From positions 298,110,978-298,174,977 of the forward strand of contig NC_085140.1 of NCBI RefSeq assembly GCF_024139115.2: 64,000 nucleotides of DNA, given 5' to 3'. Positions 39,754 through 48,370 of the stretch are shown one piece after another (position 1 is the stretch's first letter; each line of letters opens with the position of its first letter). Position numbers and translations under genes: made by a program. The stretch comes from Armigeres subalbatus (Eukaryota; Arthropoda; Insecta; Diptera; Culicidae). A model generated the notes under the pieces. That model was not told the origin of the DNA. It searched no databases and saw only the letters and a list, made by a program, of their open reading frames with translations.

Positions 39754-42700
39754 TCATTTGTTTGCCGCACTGGCACCACCTGCTGGCGCCCTACCCCAGG
39801 CATTCAAATTGGGAACCACCACACGACGTTGTCCGCTTTCGCGTTGCAAAACTTCCAGAAGGCTCATGCTGGGCAGCCAGGTCTGTAACGAGATGGGACT
39901 CTTTTAGCCTTATCTGAAAATTGAGTTCACCAAAAGTGATTTACCTTAAACCGATCGGCCGTGGCCACCACGTTGCGGTTCGGTTCGGCATCGTAGGCCA
40001 CCGACTCGACACCAAACATTCCGCACATTTCGTGCACAACACGCCGCTTATCGCGGTTCATCACCGGGAATGAATGGCTACGCGAGTGTTTGCTCTCCTT
40101 TGCTAGCTTGACCAGCTCGGTGAGTTTCTCGTGGACCATCTTGATCAGGGTGGGATCCTTCTTGGCGAAGGTTTTCAAAAAGTCTGAATAGTTCGGCTGC
40201 AGCTTGGATGACAGGTCCGGGTTGCGAATCTGGAGACCGATGGCCAGGCGCCGGTTTCGTTCCACTAGGCGGCACTCTTCGCTGCACTCCAGGCTGGAAG
40301 ATCCAATAATGATTAGAACGATGTTCGCTGATTTTTGGGGTGCATATGGAAATGAACATAAATTTTCTACTCACGTTTTGTTGCTTTTTGGTTTACCAGA
40401 GCCAAGGATATCGCTCAGCTCCACCGATCCGCCGCGTTGCATTTCCTGCATGGAAGAGGCCAACTGGGCAGAAGCGAATCGCCGATAGTCCTTGCCGAAG
40501 TCATGACATGTTCGCATCTGTTTCCGGTGGCCACACTCGCACGTAACCTCAACCATTTCCTTACAGGGTAGATCGGGTGGACATTCTCCGTCATGGCAAG
40601 GAGCCTTGCACTGGTGAGTGCAGTTCGTTCTGGGGGTGGTGCAGCTTTGCTTGCAAATTTCGCCCTCTTCGAAGCATTCGTTCTGGTGACACGGTTTGAT
40701 GCACTTGTGACGTCCACAGGGCAGTGGTTTGGCGCATGCAAGGCCACAACTGAACGAGCTCTGGAAGCACGGGATAGTCTTTCGTTGTTCGTGTTTGCCG
40801 TAGCAATGTTGGGTGGTCAGCACAACGCACGGCGGACAGTCGGTATCCGAATGGCAGTTGTGCAGAACGGGGTGGGAACAGCTGTGCCGTCGAGAGCAGG
40901 GTTTATCGCAATGAGGTTTTTTCGTTCCACAAGGCACTGGTGGATAAATAATGCTAGCTCCACACTCGCAGGTTAACTCGTCGAACGATACGCGGTGGCA
41001 TGTTTGGCACGAGCCTTTGTGACAGGTCTTATCGCAGCGATGACGACCGCAGGACAGCATTTTGGAGCAAGTTTTTGTGCAGATGTGATCGAAATCGATG
41101 CAACATTCCTGGTTACACTTGTGTTTGGCGCAGCTACGCATTCGACTGCAGCGCTTCTTACATCGTGCATCATCGGCTCGGGTTTGAAGCTGTTTGCATT
41201 TCATTTGCTGGTCCATGTGGCCGCAGCGGCATTTGACAACAGTAGATTTATTACACGGCGGACAATCGCCCAAGTGGCATTTGGCGATACATACGTGATG
41301 AGCACCCGGGGTGCCACAGAGAAGTTGCTTCCCACAGACAGATTCACAGACTGGTATAGGGTCCAAGCATGATTCCCTTTCGCCTTTGATAATTGCTTGT
41401 TTCCCACATGGACATGACGTGATATGTCCGGGAGAGAGCAAACACTCGCCACAAGTGCTCGTGTGGCAAAGTTTCGTGCAGTTGTGGTTCTTGCAACTCA
41501 GCTGGGCATTACAAACTTTCTCACAACAGAAACGAGTATTATCCAAATTATCAACCGTACAAGCTACCAGCCTTTTCTCTTTCCCACAGTGACATTCGTG
41601 CTCCAAAGTTTCCTCACATTGGTTGCAAGCTCCGTAGTGGCACTTCTGCTGACAACTGTGAATGCCGCAATTCAAAGCTCTTTCGCAAGTGGCATCGCAA
41701 AGGATCTCATCTTTCTGACGGCACTGCATCGGCTTGGTGGAGCGGCCGCATCCACAGCTTCTCTGAACTATCGCCTGACACGGCGGACAAGGTCCCGGGT
41801 GGCAGAGCTGAGTGCACGAATGTTCACAAATCTCTTCGCGGCCACATAGCTCTCCGCACGAGTGGGCCACATCGTTCCGATTGTATTGGGGATTCCTCTG
41901 CTTGCCACAGAAACAGTAGTATTCGTGGGGTACCTGTTTAAAATAAAACATCAGAATAAGTAACGATAATAAATAAGTATTTTGGAGTTTCTTAAGCGGA
42001 ACAAAGCCGTTTACACTTTAGAAACCTCCGCTGTATAATACTGAGCTAGCAAGTTACCTTCTTCGACACGTTCTGACACGCAGGGCATCGCCACCCATCG
42101 TCGGACTTAGAACTGCTGGCCCATTTGGTCGTACAGTTCAGATGCAGAATGTGGTAGCAGTTCGGACAGGACCAAACCGATTGAGTGGGGCGCACCAGTT
42201 CGCAACAAACGAGACACTCCAGTTTGCAGGAATCCAGCTCCCGAATCAATTTCTCGCGCTGCGAGCACTTGGAGATGATTTTCGCTTCTAACTTTTCCTG
42301 GCGGGCCCGGTTTCTCTGAAACCCATTCGGTCTCCGTTGCTCCTTCATGTCCGCGTCCTTGGATTCACTCTGATTGTGATTGCTGTTGCCGTTCATCTGA
42401 GGCTCGTTTCGATCCTGGTCCGGTCTTTGACCTTGGCGGCCAAACCGGAATCGTCCTCCCCCATTGTTTCCCTTCCATCTTCCATTTTGTTGAGGTAGTT
42501 GTTGAGCCCTACGAGGACGGTCGTAGTCTCTTGAGGTGTCCTCATATCCTCCGTTTTGAAAATGTCCTTCTCCACCATTCTCCCTCGGTTCACGGAAATC
42601 ATTGAAACCACGTCCTCGCCCCCTCGCAAATCCATTACGATCTCCGTTACGATTATTCTTGCGACCATTGTTCCACCTTGGTCTGTCGTACTGCTTGCGT

Positions 42701-42978
42701 ACAGCGCCGGTTGCTCTCTCCCCATTGCATTGACCAGTGATGCTTTCTTGATGAGGAAGCCTTCCTTCCTGCCGTTGCCAGCTTGGTACAAATTCCGCTG
42801 CGGTTGGTTTCAGGCTTGAGCTTCGTTCACTGTCAAATCCACCACCTGAACGCGAATTGGATGGTTCTTGCCCGAGGGAAGCACGCGTGGAAAATTGCGA
42901 TATGAATTGCTCAAAGCTTTGATGTCCACCACCGGATGCTACTGAGGACGACGGTCCTTCTCTTCCACCTGACGCCAT
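39754..42978 (-). CDS. stc: NF-X1 type zinc-finger protein, shuttle craft
   Basis: Coding exons on the minus strand are 42978-42058, 41933-40375, 40293-39945 and 39882-39754. All have GT-AG introns (124, 81 and 62 bases) and join in frame to 985 residues, the size of fly shuttle craft. The N-terminal 220 residues are disordered, rich in G, N and R, with RGRGRG. A RING/PHD-like finger is at about 255-305 (CLVCCELV ... [12 protein letters not shown] ... CPAC). Exon 2 carries tandem NF-X1 cysteine repeats (for example [31 protein letters not shown]). An R3H domain is in exon 3 ([25 protein letters not shown]). The family consists of nuclear DNA-binding regulators; in flies stc acts in nervous system development. 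Confidence 0.93.
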
Positions 42979-43171
42979 TTCTGGCTACAGGTGGTTTGTC
43001 CTGCTTCCTTTGCAGCACAACAAAGATCTTTCGCCCCGCAAGGGGGATTCAGAGTAAAGATGGAACGCAACTCCCAGTAGTGGTGTATGACTGCCCTGGA
43101 ATGATGGTAAACAACGGTCCTTAACTGACGACGAAATGTTGCGAAATAAATATCAATGGAATGGAATAGTA
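42979..43171 (-). promoter_or_regulatory. 5' flank of shuttle craft
   Basis: This is directly upstream of the start codon on the minus strand and probably 5' UTR or proximal promoter. No TATA box is obvious. A MITE lies just beyond (43172-43342), within about 200 bases of the start codon. Confidence 0.4.
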
Positions 43172-43344: not shown

Positions 43345-43725
43345 TTTGTTCGAGATTAGATGATTGAACGATAGACCGATAATTACTTGGCTAATAAAAG
43401 GTCAGATGTAATTATTTTCTCATCAGCATTTTTGGCATACCCTAGTCAAATGATTGTCGTCATTGAAGGAAAAAGAAGAGAAAGTTTCCCTCTTGCAAGT
43501 GTTTCAATGTTGTGAAATTTAAATTCAAAATGATTGCCCTATAAACGATTTGATTCCGGATATTTTTATTTAAAAATGTAAAACATGCTTACCTGAGCTG
43601 GAAAATCGAAGGAAAAGCACTGGGGAAATGAGGAAAAGAACTAAAAAATTGGAAAATTACTATCGATGGTGAGTTAGGTACTGCACGAGCTGACGGTGGT
43701 CAAAGACCATCACCGAATCCGAGGC
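43345..43725. other. Spacer left of the MITE cluster
   Basis: No gene, RNA or repeat end recognised. It could contain distal 5' sequence of shuttle craft. Confidence 0.35.
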
Positions 43726-43908
43726 CAAGATTTTTTTATGTACAGGTTATCCGACTTGTCAAAATCCCCAACTCAGCCATCTTGGATTTTTGTATGGAAT
43801 TTATGCTCGTTTATTTACGTTTTGCACTGAAAATTTATGTTTCCCCCCCGCGCTGGTTATTCCCATCTACTGACGAAGTCATATAACCTGTACATAAAAA
43901 AAATCTTG
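43726..43908 (+). mobile_element. Self-nesting MITE, copy 1 (183 bp)
   Basis: The ends CAAGATTTTTTTATGTACAG and CTGTACATAAAAAAAATCTTG are inverted. The exact 8-base duplication TCCGAGGC flanks it (43718-43725 and 43909-43916), pointing to hAT mobilisation. The interior includes ccatcttggatttttgtatg and cccccccgcgctggttattc. No coding frame. Confidence 0.85.
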
Positions 43909-44020
43909 TCCGAGGCAATGATCAAGATTTTTTATGTATAATATAAACAGAAATAAACATAAAATAATCAAGATAACTGATTGAAGTCAAATCAATAAAA
44001 ATCTTAACAATGATAAATCG

Positions 44021-44203
44021 CAAGATTTTTTTATGTACAGGTTATCCGACTTGTCAAAATCCCCAACTCAGCCATCTTGGATTTTTGTATGGAATTTATG
44101 CTCGTTTATTTACGTTTTGCACTGAAAATTTATGTTTCCCCCCCGCGCTGGTTATTCCCATCTACTGACGAAGTCATATAACCTGTACATAAAAAAAATC
44201 TTG
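44021..44203 (+). mobile_element. Self-nesting MITE, copy 2 (183 bp)
   Basis: Same element and orientation as copy 1, 112 bases further right. Flanking octamers (ATAAATCG and GATGACCG) do not match, so one flank has changed or this copy arose by recombination. The spacer itself contains a truncated end motif, caagattttttatgtata, near 43923. Confidence 0.8.
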
Positions 44204-44267
44204 GATGACCGAACCGAATGAAAGAGAGTCTACTGGCAGTAAGAGCGAGAAAAGACGAGCAGCAAAA

Positions 44268-44641
44268 CAAGATTTTTTTATGTACAGGTTATCCGACTCA
44301 AGATTTTTTTTATGTACAGGTTATATGACTTCGTCAGTAGATGGGAATAACCAGCGCGGGGGGGAAACATAAATTTTCAGTGCAAAACGTAAATAAACGA
44401 GCATAAATTCCATACAAAAATCCAAGATGGCTGAGTTGGGGATTTTGACAAGTCGGATAACCTGTACATAAAAAAATCTTGATCCGACTTGTCAAAATCC
44501 CCAACTCAGCCATCTTGGATTTTTATATGGAATTTATGCTCGTTTATTTACGTTTTGCACTGAAAATTTATGTTTCCCCCCCGCGCTGGTTATTCCCATC
44601 TACTGACGAAGTCATATAACCTGTACATAAAAAAAATCTTG
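44268..44641 (+). mobile_element. Self-nesting MITE, copy 3, split by copy 4
   Basis: The outer copy is flanked by the exact duplication CAGCAAAA (44260-44267 and 44642-44649). It is interrupted after its first 31 bases by copy 4. Confidence 0.85.
44299..44481 (-). mobile_element. Self-nesting MITE, copy 4, inserted inside copy 3
   Basis: A complete 183-base copy in reverse orientation, flanked by the exact duplication ATCCGACT (44291-44298 and 44482-44489), a sequence that belongs to the inverted end of copy 3. This proves a secondary insertion of the element into itself. Confidence 0.9.
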
Positions 44642-44782
44642 CAGCAAAATAAAAGGGATAGTACGAGACAACAAGATTATCAGTTTTTTTTTATTTTGAC
44701 GATTTTTCAACCCACCCCTGCGACTTCGACTATATAGGCCTTTTCATGTGACATTGCCGCAGGGGTAGAAGGTGAACTGTTA

Positions 44783-44980
44783 TAGATGACTTTACCCATT
44801 AATGGGTACTGTGTTATTGTTGATATTATTCCCACCGAGAAAAATTCACCCATTTTCTTGAAAAAGTGCCACTACCCATTTTAATGAGTAGTGGCGCTTT
44901 TTGAAGAAAATGGGTGAATTTTTCACGGTGGGAATAATATCAACAATAACACAGTACCCATTAATGGGTAAAGTCATCTA
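44783..44980. mobile_element. Near-perfect foldback palindrome (198 bp)
   Basis: The arms run from tagatgactttacccattaa on the left to the exact inverse ending gtcatcta on the right, with the centre at about 44881. Only a few mismatches occur in about 99 paired bases. Both arms contain ACCCATTAATGGGT, itself a palindrome and the end motif of the 7.8-9.5 kb element. A transcript would form a long hairpin. No coding frame. Confidence 0.8.
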
Positions 44981-44989
44981 ACCGTGTGG

Positions 44990-45553
44990 AGCACTAAATC
45001 CCTACCCCAACATTAGGCTTTCAGCGATCGTGTACGTACACGCACGTTTCACTCACACTTTTACTCGGTTTGTTTGCAACCACAAGCAGCTGTCGCGGCA
45101 AAATCAAATGGGATTGTTTGTAACCACGAACCTGCGTTCGTGTTGGTGAGAAATGTCGGCAAGACCCTAATGTGCGACATCTGGATTTGGTTCTAAAGTG
45201 TAAACAACAGTGTTAATTCTCTACCATTTTTTTGTTATGGCGAGGCAATTTTTATGCACACTTTTGTTTTCGACATTTTATCAAAATTAAAAACTCAATC
45301 ATGCAGCAATATAACGATGTGGTATGCTTGAGATACCTGCTTGATTATAGGGACTCGAAAAAGAATTTATTTGCAGTAATTAACCGAATATAAAAATGCT
45401 CACATTAACGATTGCGCCCTAACACCGGTTCTAAGCTTCAATGCAGAGTACACGAGCTTTGTTCGCCAGTGACAGGCGTATGAGGCCCTTGCATTGCCGA
45501 GACTGCACTTGTTTACAACCGCTGAACAGGCCTGCAAGTCCGAAGCTGTCACT
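44990..45553. other. Unassigned spacer
   Basis: No gene or element end recognised. Confidence 0.4.
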
Positions 45554-45687
45554 TTCATAGAAGAACTGTCAATTGATGATGAAATCAGCTGTTTTCAAAC
45601 GTCTCGTGAAAAGGCCCATTCCATTTCATAGAAGAACTGTCAATTGACGATAAAATCAGCTGCTTTTAAAAGTCTCGTGAAAAGGCC
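45554..45687 (+). repeat. Tandem duplication, period 71 bp
   Basis: tcatagaagaactgtcaatt at 45555 recurs at 45626, and both units continue to gtctcgtgaaaaggcc. The two units differ at a handful of bases. Confidence 0.65.
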
Positions 45688-45705
45688 TCTTGTACACAGA
45701 CTGGA

Positions 45706-46247
45706 TTGGCGCTTTGATGTTGCATGAAGAAGAAGAAGAAGCAGAAAGATGATACTCGAAAAAATCTCCACGGGAAACCATACGAAGAAGTTTTTAAAAC
45801 TCTTCTCAAAAATTCTAGAAGCAATTTAATCAAAAACGGTAAGCAGTACGGGGTTGGACTTTTCTTCTACTGTCAGGCTATTGACATCCTATTGTTTAGC
45901 CCATCGCCAGATCGTAGCCAGGATGTCCCGCGCTATAATTTTTTTTTTCATACTGCGTTTCAATGATGACAGCGGACTATGTATATTGATGATGATGACA
46001 CCACGCTTGACACCGGCTTGTCTACTGTATAATAAACAATATTTCTATTCGAAATTTTATTTTGTGATACTACGCTTAGTACTCAGTAGAAGAAAAGTCC
46101 AACCCCGTACTGCTTACCGTTTTTAATTAAATTGCTTCTAGAATTTTTGAGAAGAGTTTTGAAAACTTGTTCGTATGGTTTCCCGTGGAGATTTTTTCGA
46201 TTATCATCTTTCTGCTTCTTCTTCTTCATGCAACATCAAAGCGCCAA
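45706..46247. mobile_element. TA-target MITE with long inverted ends, copy 2 (542 bp)
   Basis: Same family as 27309-27698. The ends TTGGCGCTTTGATGTTGCAT and ATGCAACATCAAAGCGCCAA are exact inverses, the gaagaagaagaag blocks are present, and gcagtacggggttggac occurs in both arms. It is longer than copy 1 because the loop contains about 160 extra bases bounded by ctactg repeats. A TA follows at the right; the left flank reads GA. Confidence 0.75.
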
Positions 46248-46389
46248 TAGGATTTGTTTTCATCGGGAAACGCTAAAAACCTTTATGTGGATTCTCCTAT
46301 AACGGGTGGTTATAAACGCACACATAAAATTTATTTGTAAATTTCTTTAGATTTTTGCCATTAAAAATGTGTGGATTTTTATTAGTGTA

Positions 46390-46906
46390 CACTAGGACAG
46401 AGCCTCCTCACAGCTTAGTGTTCTTTTAAGCACTTCCACAGTGTTATTAACTGCGAGGTTTCAAAGCCAGCTTACCATTTTTGCATCCGTATATCATGAG
46501 GCTAACACGATGATACTTTTATGCCCAGGGAAATCGAGACAATTTCCAATCCGAACATTGCCTTGACCGGCACCGGGAATCGAACCCTGCCACCACAGAG
46601 AAACAGACGTCTCACTCAGCACATGTTCCATCGTTCACCTTTTTAACGGTTAATTTAATTTTATGTAGGTGGTCAATCGGCCACCGATGGCGCTTCCATC
46701 GATTTTGCTTGTGTTTGACGTTTGCGCACTACCGCCATCTGGTTGCCGCTTGACCACACACAGTGATTTTAGCATTGGGGGATAATGTTTTCGTGACGAT
46801 GATTTTGATTGCATTTTGTTCTAAGTGAGACGTCTGTTTCTCTGTGCTGCCACCATCAGCATGGTCTTGCTTTGTGGCCGCGCGTCTTACCACACGGCTA
46901 AGGAGG
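46390..46906 (-). mobile_element. Feilai-type tRNA-derived SINE, interrupted
   Basis: On the minus strand the head reads cctccttagccgtgtggtaa (box A) and the box B-like gggttcgattcccggtgccg lies at about 46566-46585, followed by the body with ccctgggcataaaagtatca, tcgtgttagcctcatgatat and gtggaagtgcttaaaagaac. I recognise this as the abundant Aedes SINE class. A hAT-like MITE at 46595-46846 separates the box A half from the box B half. Confidence 0.75.
46595..46846. mobile_element. hAT-like MITE inside the SINE (252 bp)
   Basis: The exact 8-base duplication CTGCCACC flanks it (46587-46594 and 46847-46854). Ends acagagaaacagacgtctca and tgagacgtctgtttctctgt are exact inverses. Removing it restores the SINE head. 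Confidence 0.85.
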
Positions 46907-47790
46907 TCAAAAATTATAGGGGTCCTATAAAGAGAGATTTGCAAATGCTTTTCCAGACGATTTAGAAACGATTTCAAAATTTACCAATCTTTGCAGATAG
47001 TTTATGCAGCATTTTGGTAAATAGTAATGAGGGACCGACTGTTTACTGCGATGACATTTACTTCCAGGGTGCAGCAGCCGTTAAAAGTGTAGGCAACAAT
47101 CTTGTTTATGGCAAATATTTTGTAAGTCGCTTCCTAGGAGCTGCGGATAGAGTCAAAACGAGTGCCAAAAAATCTCCAAAGTAAGCTGTCAAAAAGTATC
47201 CATCGCATCGAGAGAGGTTTTGTGCATTTTGAGCGCATCTGAGAGAGTACACGTATAAATCAACTCATACTAAATATTGCTCATTTTGAACAAATTTCAA
47301 TTTTCTGGCGTCATTTTAAATATATAGACGGATTCAAAATAAGTGGAGGGTATGAATTAATAAAATATTCGACACGTTAATTCATGCGATGCAGTAAATT
47401 GACGAAATCTTTATAATTAATTCTATAAAGATAAATACAATGATAATTCAATGTGAAAAAATCGTAACGTGCGCATTGAACACCGAGAGGAAATTTGCGA
47501 GTTTCAAGCAAAATATCTTGAAAATTAAATTCGATCTACAGTGACTATAATAACAGTGTCGTCAAGTGTCAGAATTGGAACAGAATCGTTTGTCAGTTCC
47601 ATACAAATGCGCGTTCCAAACGAGCAGGAGACCTGTCAAACGTGGCACATGACGTTACTCTTCTTACAGGACTCTAATTCGATCGAGTCCGCAGCTCCCA
47701 AGTCGCTTCAAAATATTACGCTTGATTTTGTCCAGCCCTGATGGTTCTAATTCGTTCCATGTCTCTGAATGGAAAGAGAAAAGAGCCCGC
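46907..47790. other. Unassigned spacer
   Basis: No gene, RNA gene or repeat end recognised in this mostly AT-rich sequence. Confidence 0.4.
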
Positions 47791-47798
47791 ATCAAAAC

Positions 47799-47981
47799 CA
47801 AGATTTTTTTTATGTACAGGTTATATGACTTCGTCAGTAGATGGGAATAACCAGCGCGGGGGGGAAACATAAATTTTCAGTGCAAAACGTAAATAAACGA
47901 GCATAAATTCCATATAAAAATCCAAGATAGCTGAGTTGGGGATTTTGACAAGTCGGATAACCTGTACATAAAAAAATCTTG
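47799..47981 (-). mobile_element. Self-nesting MITE, copy 5 (183 bp)
   Basis: A complete copy flanked by ATCAAAAC at 47791-47798 and 47982-47989. The right-hand octamer is shared as the left flank of copy 6. Confidence 0.85.
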
Positions 47982-47989
47982 ATCAAAAC

Positions 47990-48362
47990 CAAGATTTTTT
48001 TTATGTACAGGTCAAGATTTTTTTTATGTACAGGTTATATGACTTCGTCAGTAGATGGGAATAACCAGCGCGGGGGGGAAACATAAATTTTCAGTGCAAA
48101 ACGTAAATAAACGAGCATAAATTCCATACAAAAATCCAAGATGGCTGAGTTGGGGATTTTGACAAGTCGGATAACCTGTACATAAAAAATCTTGGTACAG
48201 GTTATATGACTTCGTCAGTAGATGGGAATAACCAGCGCGGGGGGGAAACATAAATTTTCAGTGCAAAACGTAAATAAACGAGCATAAATTCCATATAAAA
48301 ATCCAAGATGGCTGAGTTGGGGATTTTGACAAGTCGGATAACCTGTACATAAAAAAATCTTG
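47990..48362 (-). mobile_element. Self-nesting MITE, copy 6, split by copy 7
   Basis: It is flanked by ATCAAAAC on both sides (47982-47989 and 48363-48370), the same octamer as copy 5, giving octamer-copy-octamer-copy-octamer. It is interrupted after 23 bases by copy 7. Confidence 0.85.
48013..48194 (-). mobile_element. Self-nesting MITE, copy 7, inserted inside copy 6
   Basis: A 182-base complete copy with the exact duplication GTACAGGT (48005-48012 and 48195-48202), which is part of the inverted end of copy 6. It is the second independent insertion of this element into itself in the window. Confidence 0.9.
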
Positions 48363-48370
48363 ATCAAAAC

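What the first reader, a model, noticed from the sequence alone, without database searches (positions are those of the whole stretch)
43718..48370. A 183 bp MITE that repeatedly inserted into itself
Seven copies of one CAAGAT-ended element lie within 4.7 kb. Copy 4 sits inside copy 3 with exact 8-base duplication ATCCGACT, and copy 7 sits inside copy 6 with exact GTACAGGT. Both targets lie within the first 31 bases of the host copy, in the inverted end. Two independent self-insertions in the same short region suggest that the transposase prefers its own ends as target, or that the ends are unusually accessible. Exact duplications mean recent activity.
Basis: seen in the sequence. Interest (0 to 1): 0.8.

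Follow-up and report, generated by a model that had tools for sequence, protein, structure and literature searches.

The report
Local burst of a self-nested MITE
Seven near-identical copies of a tiny jumping-DNA element sit within 4.7 kb of an insect genome, two of them inside other copies, most likely because the element hops to nearby sites, not because it aims at its own ends.

Summary
In detail: seven copies of a 183-bp CAAGAT-ended element in 4.65 kb, copy 4 inside copy 3 (TSD ATCCGACT), copy 7 inside copy 6 (TSD GTACAGGT). Preference for the element's own ends is not supported: by exact pattern, an end interrupted by another end occurs in this genome only at these two sites; two internal anchors found none; 0 of 80 sampled elements elsewhere contain a copy of their own family; and the ends are not favoured by the element's TSD motif. 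What is unusual is the crowding: 7 of the 21 copies carrying the young subfamily's diagnostic 25-mer lie here. Given seven insertions into so short a stretch, two or more self-insertions occur in 24% of simulations. Best reading: a recent local-hopping burst of an ordinary, probably hAT-type MITE upstream of an NF-X1-like gene. No autonomous element was identified; the transposase search did not complete.

The parts
43726..43908 (+). copy 1, 183 bp, G67, TSD TCCGAGGC (43718-43725, 43909-43916)
43923..44006 (.). 84-bp element, CAAGAT...ATCTTA, TSD GCAATGAT/ACAATGAT (1 mismatch); resembles the 183-bp family only in its outermost bases
44021..44203 (+). copy 2, identical to copy 1, no TSD (ATAAATCG / GATGACCG)
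44268..44641 (+). copy 3 (host), A67, TSD CAGCAAAA; interrupted by copy 4
44299..44481 (-). copy 4, G67, inside copy 3 at element positions 24-31, TSD ATCCGACT
47799..47981 (-). copy 5, A67 and T53, TSD ATCAAAAC
47990..48362 (-). copy 6 (host), A67; shares the middle ATCAAAAC (47982-47989) with copy 5; interrupted by copy 7
48013..48194 (-). copy 7, 182 bp (one T short in the T-run), G67, inside copy 6 at element positions 161-168, TSD GTACAGGT
39930..42984 (-). neighbouring gene: RING, NF-X1 zinc finger and R3H reading frames (NF-X1-like); the cluster lies in its 5' flank
   Evidence: PF13639 at 22.8 bits is below its cut-off of 27.3; PF01422 and PF01424 are above theirs

Best explanation
A recently active, non-coding 183-bp terminal-inverted-repeat MITE, moved by an unseen transposase that makes 8-bp duplications, reached this stretch upstream of an NF-X1-like gene and then transposed repeatedly to very nearby sites (local hopping). 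With several copies packed into about 3.3 kb of other DNA, two G67 hops landed by chance inside A67 copies, at 8-mers that fit the transposase's loose target motif RTYNNRAY reasonably well. The tandem of copies 5 and 6 arose either by a second insertion exactly into the first copy's TSD (a 98.7th-percentile target) or by duplication of the 191-bp unit between the two TSDs during break repair. Shown: copies, TSDs, host and insert subtypes, 7 of 21 diagnostic copies here, rarity of nesting elsewhere by exact pattern. Inferred: local hopping, order of events, superfamily (hAT of the Ac/hobo type thought more likely than P).
For: 7 of 21 genomic copies with the exact diagnostic 25-mer lie in this 4.65 kb; the other 14 are single, the closest two 0.57 Mb apart. 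The broad family (1,494 ends at up to 2 mismatches, control 0) is spaced about as at random in the listed sample of 100 exact ends: 1 of 74 gaps under 20 kb against 0.71 expected. Five different exact TSDs show separate insertions, not a segmental duplication. Eight full-length copies are identical, three in the window and five elsewhere. The used self-target sites rank 2nd and 15th of 176 8-mers by a motif built from 74 other TSDs. Given the crowding, two or more nestings have P = 0.24. [quoted passage not shown] P within ~100 kb, and 50-60% of maize Ac within 5 cM (PMC3016246, passages).
Against: No donor-to-target move was observed. Of the 14 other young copies 4 lie within 50 Mb of the cluster (post hoc P = 0.024) and 2 within 20 Mb (P = 0.077), so exported copies show at best weak linkage. 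No second tight cluster of this subfamily exists, though local hopping might be expected to make others. The simulation takes the cluster's own span as given, which favours nesting; over 20 kb P falls to 0.012. Copy 3's own TSD is a poor match to the motif (36th percentile).
Confidence: 0.65

Rival explanations
1. An insertion hotspot: open chromatin or an attractive sequence upstream of the NF-X1-like gene draws insertions from anywhere, and nesting follows from the crowding.
For: The stretch lies in the 5' flank of a gene, and other inverted repeats and an 84-bp CAAGAT element lie there too.
Against: All seven copies carry a 25-mer found only 21 times in the genome. No copy of the far more numerous older subfamilies (1,494 family ends) was found in the 64-kb window, although a lasting hotspot should hold a like share of them. 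A hotspot open only during the young burst is not excluded.
Confidence: 0.2
2. The transposase prefers, or is tethered to, its own ends, so new copies are aimed into the TIRs of resident copies.
For: Two of two self-insertions lie in the outer 31 bp, at opposite ends and in both relative orientations; copy 6 abuts copy 5. In the fetched loci 4 elements have an older relative inside about 1.1 kb, one of them as host (L003, L026, L091, L121); how common such relatives are was not counted.
Against: No other end-interruption by exact pattern in the genome, none among 80 sampled elements; the one other nesting, L091, is in the middle of its host; ends hold 21% of predicted target weight against 27% under uniformity; both in the ends by chance P = 0.12.
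Confidence: 0.07
3. The arrangement is an assembly artefact.
For: Near-identical copies are hard to assemble, and no reads were available.
Against: Exact 8-bp duplications at both nested sites, and subtype differences (A67 hosts, G67 inserts, T53 in copy 5), are not what collapsed or misjoined repeats would be expected to produce.
Confidence: 0.04
4. Copies spread by duplication or gene conversion within the locus instead of transposition.
For: Copies 5-6 are a 191-bp direct tandem; copies 1, 2 and 4 are identical; copy 2 lacks a TSD. A 40-bp end duplication is seen at L127.
Against: Five distinct exact TSDs around copies 1, 3, 4, 5/6 and 7.
Confidence: 0.04

Closest known systems
hAT-derived MITEs of insects (e.g. 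Mar of Drosophila, PMC3517528, passages seen)
   Same: 8-bp TSD, short TIR (hAT TIRs 5-27 bp per that paper), no coding capacity.
   Different: Mar is Buster type with TSD nnnTAnnn; here the motif is RTYNNRAY, nearer to the Ac/hobo type nTnnnnAn (recalled). No transposase linked.
P-element MITEs of Anopheles gambiae (PMC1562414, passages and outline seen)
   Same: 8-bp TSDs, short non-coding derivatives; mosquito host (here only inferred).
   Different: P TIRs there are 27-31 bp; here ~25 bp. No P transposase linked. The P target motif GTCCGGAC (recalled) would also fit RTYNNRAY.
Maize double Ds (one Ds inside an identical one, in inverted orientation; structure recalled; PMC3260210 passages, mention it)
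   Same: One hAT copy inside another with an 8-bp duplication; copy 4 in copy 3 is also antiparallel.
   Different: Far shorter element; copy 7 in copy 6 is parallel. PMC3260210 calls nesting rarer for Ds types and found no double Ds in B73.
Nested MITEs of maize and rice (Jiang and Wessler 2001; only the reference line seen; paper not held)
   Same: MITEs found inside MITEs (recalled).
   Different: Content not read; no numeric comparison made.

Membership tests
MITE | short, non-coding, TIR-bounded, TSD-flanked, many similar-length copies | tested here: met
   183 bp, ~25-bp TIR; 80 distinct elements elsewhere with a TSD at up to one mismatch, 74 exact; 59 of 80 are 181-185 bp; 1,494 ends
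hAT superfamily | 8-bp TSD | tested here: met
   74 exact and 6 with one mismatch among the 80 kept; pairs with two or more mismatches were not kept
hAT, Ac/hobo type | TSD consensus nTnnnnAn | tested here: inconclusive
   T2 34 of 74, A7 40 of 74; symmetrised RTYNNRAY; a P-type motif would also fit
hAT, Buster type | TSD nnnTAnnn | tested here: not met
   positions 4 and 5 carry 0.02 bit each
hAT superfamily | mobilised by a hAT transposase with the same ends | not tested
   PF05699 search of the genome was sent 11 times and never answered
P superfamily | 8-bp TSD, 27-31-bp TIR, THAP transposase | tested here: inconclusive
   TSD length met; TIR ~25 bp; transposase not searched
MULE (Muta1 type) | TIR over 100 bp, TSD 8-10 bp | tested here: not met
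   TIR ~25 bp; definition from PMC5225508, passages

The most novel reading that the evidence does not exclude
The transposase-end complex of this family captures nearby or end-bound DNA as target, so that young copies seed dense local arrays by inserting beside, into the TSD of, and into the ends of resident copies; the array here is the one locus where several copies were present during activity.
Probability: 0.08. Interest if true: 0.55.

Novelty: new member of a known kind. Interest (0 to 1): 0.3.

Why it matters
It is a snapshot of a MITE burst: one third of the 21 copies that carry the subfamily's diagnostic 25-mer lie in 4.7 kb, with part of the insertion order readable from nesting and from one diagnostic base. 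That makes the distance distribution of MITE hops testable in an insect. It also shows that nesting by itself is weak evidence for self-targeting when copies are crowded.

Tried and rejected
Self-targeting of ends: rejected as the main cause. L127 was first noted as a shared-TSD tandem or aborted gap repair (note); its sequence shows a 40-bp tandem duplication of the element's right end, TSD and 10 bp of flank, with ACC at the junction, so it is not nesting. Of the 4 element-element abutments found by pattern, the two outside the window are not recognisable as pairs of elements (no BLAST hit at L125; one 17-base, 88% hit at L126). Reading frames near fetched copies (33 loci) showed no transposase to the eye; none of them was run against a family library. 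Viral and prokaryote collections gave 0 hits for one TIR pattern. MULE origin rejected by TIR length. The nesting patterns demand exact anchors, so diverged hosts are missed: L091 (element in the middle of an older sister-family MITE) was found by BLAST of a fetched locus, not by pattern. Roughly, element positions 52-65 and 97-103 and the outermost 21 bases of each end were covered by no anchor.
Full report
OBSERVATION. The window holds seven copies of one 183-bp element with ends CAAGATTTTTTTATGTACAGGTTAT (left) and the same with one more T (right). Copy 4 sits antiparallel in copy 3 with exact ATCCGACT; copy 7 sits parallel in copy 6 with exact GTACAGGT. Re-joining the host halves in a script gives 183-bp copies that differ from copy 1 only at base 67. 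Both hosts (3, 6) and copy 5 carry A67; both inserts (4, 7) and copies 1 and 2 carry G67. So the inserts are of another subtype than their hosts, as expected if they came later from another donor; with four G and three A copies this pattern alone is weak.

MISSED FEATURES. Copies 5 and 6 are separated by 8 bases only, and ATCAAAAC stands before, between and after them. Genome-wide, two CAAGAT ends facing away from each other within 30 bp occur at 4 places against 3 for the reversed control pattern. Two of the 4 are in this window: copies 5-6, and copy 1 with the 84-bp element. The other two are not recognisable as pairs of elements. Copy 2 lacks a TSD. An 84-bp CAAGAT element with a 7-of-8 TSD lies between copies 1 and 2.

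GENOME-WIDE CONTEXT. The window lies at C2:298110978-298174977 of a 1.336-Gb assembly in 2,076 contigs. No call names the species; the three chromosome-sized contigs seen and the gene content suggest a mosquito (recalled, not tested). The TIR pattern with up to 2 mismatches has 759 + 735 matches, control 0 and 0. The 100 listed, all exact and all on C1, form 75 loci with near-random spacing: 1 of 74 gaps under 20 kb against 0.71 expected, 6 under 100 kb against 3.5. An exact 25-mer carrying the young diagnostic base A38 occurs 21 times, control 0: 7 here and 14 elsewhere, the closest two of those 0.57 Mb apart; young copies with a change inside the 25-mer would be missed. Eight aligned copies are letter-identical, three of them in the window (32 sequences aligned, the 7 window copies and 25 of the 30 loci, the five window loci being left out as duplicates).

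NESTING TEST. The pattern 'element end, then another element end within 30 bp' gives 3 places, control 0: the two in this window, and C3:295669386, which is a 40-bp tandem duplication of an element's right end, TSD and 10 bp of flank. Two internal anchors gave 0 each. One search took 117 fetched loci outside the window (several show the same place twice); they hold 80 distinct elements with a TSD at up to one mismatch, 74 exact; pairs with more mismatches were not kept. None of the 80 holds a copy of its own family. Ten of the 117 loci show a second stretch of similarity of 45 bp or more: six rows are four elements split by other DNA (L051/L052, L055/L056, L062, L119), and four have an older relative nearby or around them: L026 at about 190 bp, L121 at about 490 bp, L003 at about 1 kb, and L091, whose 184-bp copy (TSD GGCTGCCC) lies in the middle of an older sister-family MITE. 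These four speak mildly for closeness to relatives; the number of such relatives in the genome was not counted, so chance cannot be judged. Limits: exact anchors miss diverged hosts, parts of the element are not covered, and only about 80 of roughly 750 or more copies were read.

TARGET CHOICE. The 74 exact TSDs give a weak palindromic motif RTYNNRAY. A weight matrix from them, none from the window, ranks ATCCGACT 2nd and the used GTACAGGT site (positions 161-168) 15th of 176 8-mers in the element, its mirror at the left end being 14th; an earlier matrix from 26 TSDs, three of them from the window, ranked them 3rd and 16th. ATCAAAAC is at the 98.7th percentile of the window, ATCCGACT at 96.8, GTACAGGT at 88.9; the median of the 74 TSDs is at 95.1. 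Against this, copy 1's TCCGAGGC is at 74.2 and copy 3's CAGCAAAA at 36.2. The element as a whole is a poorer target than the window (mean weight 0.63 against 0.98), and its outer 31-bp ends hold 21% of the weight against 27% if uniform. So the used sites are fair targets, and the ends are not special.

CHANCE. With random insertion over the genome, 0.04-0.15 nestings are expected for 750-1,500 copies, 0.62 for 3,000, so two in one window are unlikely to be genome-random. But seven insertions into this stretch (3,316 bp without the copies) give two or more nestings in 24% of 20,000 simulations, and both in the outer 31 bp in 12% of those with exactly two; over 20 kb instead, the first figure falls to 1.2%. 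The fact to explain is therefore the crowding.

MECHANISM. Local hopping explains crowding by one young subfamily. It is described for cut-and-paste transposons in general (PMC3016246, passages). A lasting hotspot predicts many older family members here; none was found in 64 kb. Linkage of the 14 other copies to the locus is weak: 4 within 50 Mb, P = 0.024, thresholds chosen after seeing the data; 2 within 20 Mb, P = 0.077. The copy 5-6 tandem may be a re-insertion in the TSD or a repair duplication; the data do not decide.

CLASSIFICATION. MITE: met. Superfamily: an 8-bp TSD and a short CA-ended TIR fit hAT or P; the TSD motif is compatible with Ac/hobo-type hAT and, from memory, with P. The autonomous partner was not found: the transposase family search was sent 11 times and never answered.

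LITERATURE. The listings (one search listed none) showed no paper plainly on this element, but a text search cannot find a sequence, so it may be in a repeat library under some name. PMC3260210 (passages) states that nesting is rarer for Ds types than for LTR retrotransposons and that no double Ds was found in B73. PMC2803484 and PMC6200218 (passages) gave nothing that bears on self-insertion.

VERDICT. Observation confirmed; self-targeting not supported; a real and tidy example of a local MITE burst with self-insertion. Interest 0.3.

Noticed in passing
L003:2685-2868 (C3 near 202.97 Mb): A sister MITE family with different ends (CAAGATGAATACACCACTAGGTGTT, TSD GGGCACAC) shares the internal core CAGCCATCTTGGATTTT, which holds a YY1/Pho-like AAGATGGC motif (motif recalled). 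Ends differ while the core is kept.
   Followed up: partly
L127:9-258 (C3:295669386): A 40-bp tandem duplication of an element's right end, TSD and 10 bp of flank, with ACC at the junction: looks like faulty break repair at a transposon end.
   Followed up: partly
L091:433-740: A 184-bp copy (TSD GGCTGCCC) inserted in the middle of an older sister-family MITE.
   Followed up: yes
L051, L055, L062, L119 (and perhaps L112): Copies lengthened to 415-631 bp with the same TIRs; in those looked at (L051, L055, L119) the internal DNA does not match the 183-bp element. L112 (454 bp) and L062 were not read.
   Followed up: partly
44783-44980: A near-perfect inverted repeat with 98-bp arms (96% complementary, 2-nt spacer), probably another foldback-type element.
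   Followed up: no
45729-46227: An inverted repeat with 144-bp arms (97%) and 211 bp between them, probably another MITE, in the same upstream stretch.
   Followed up: no
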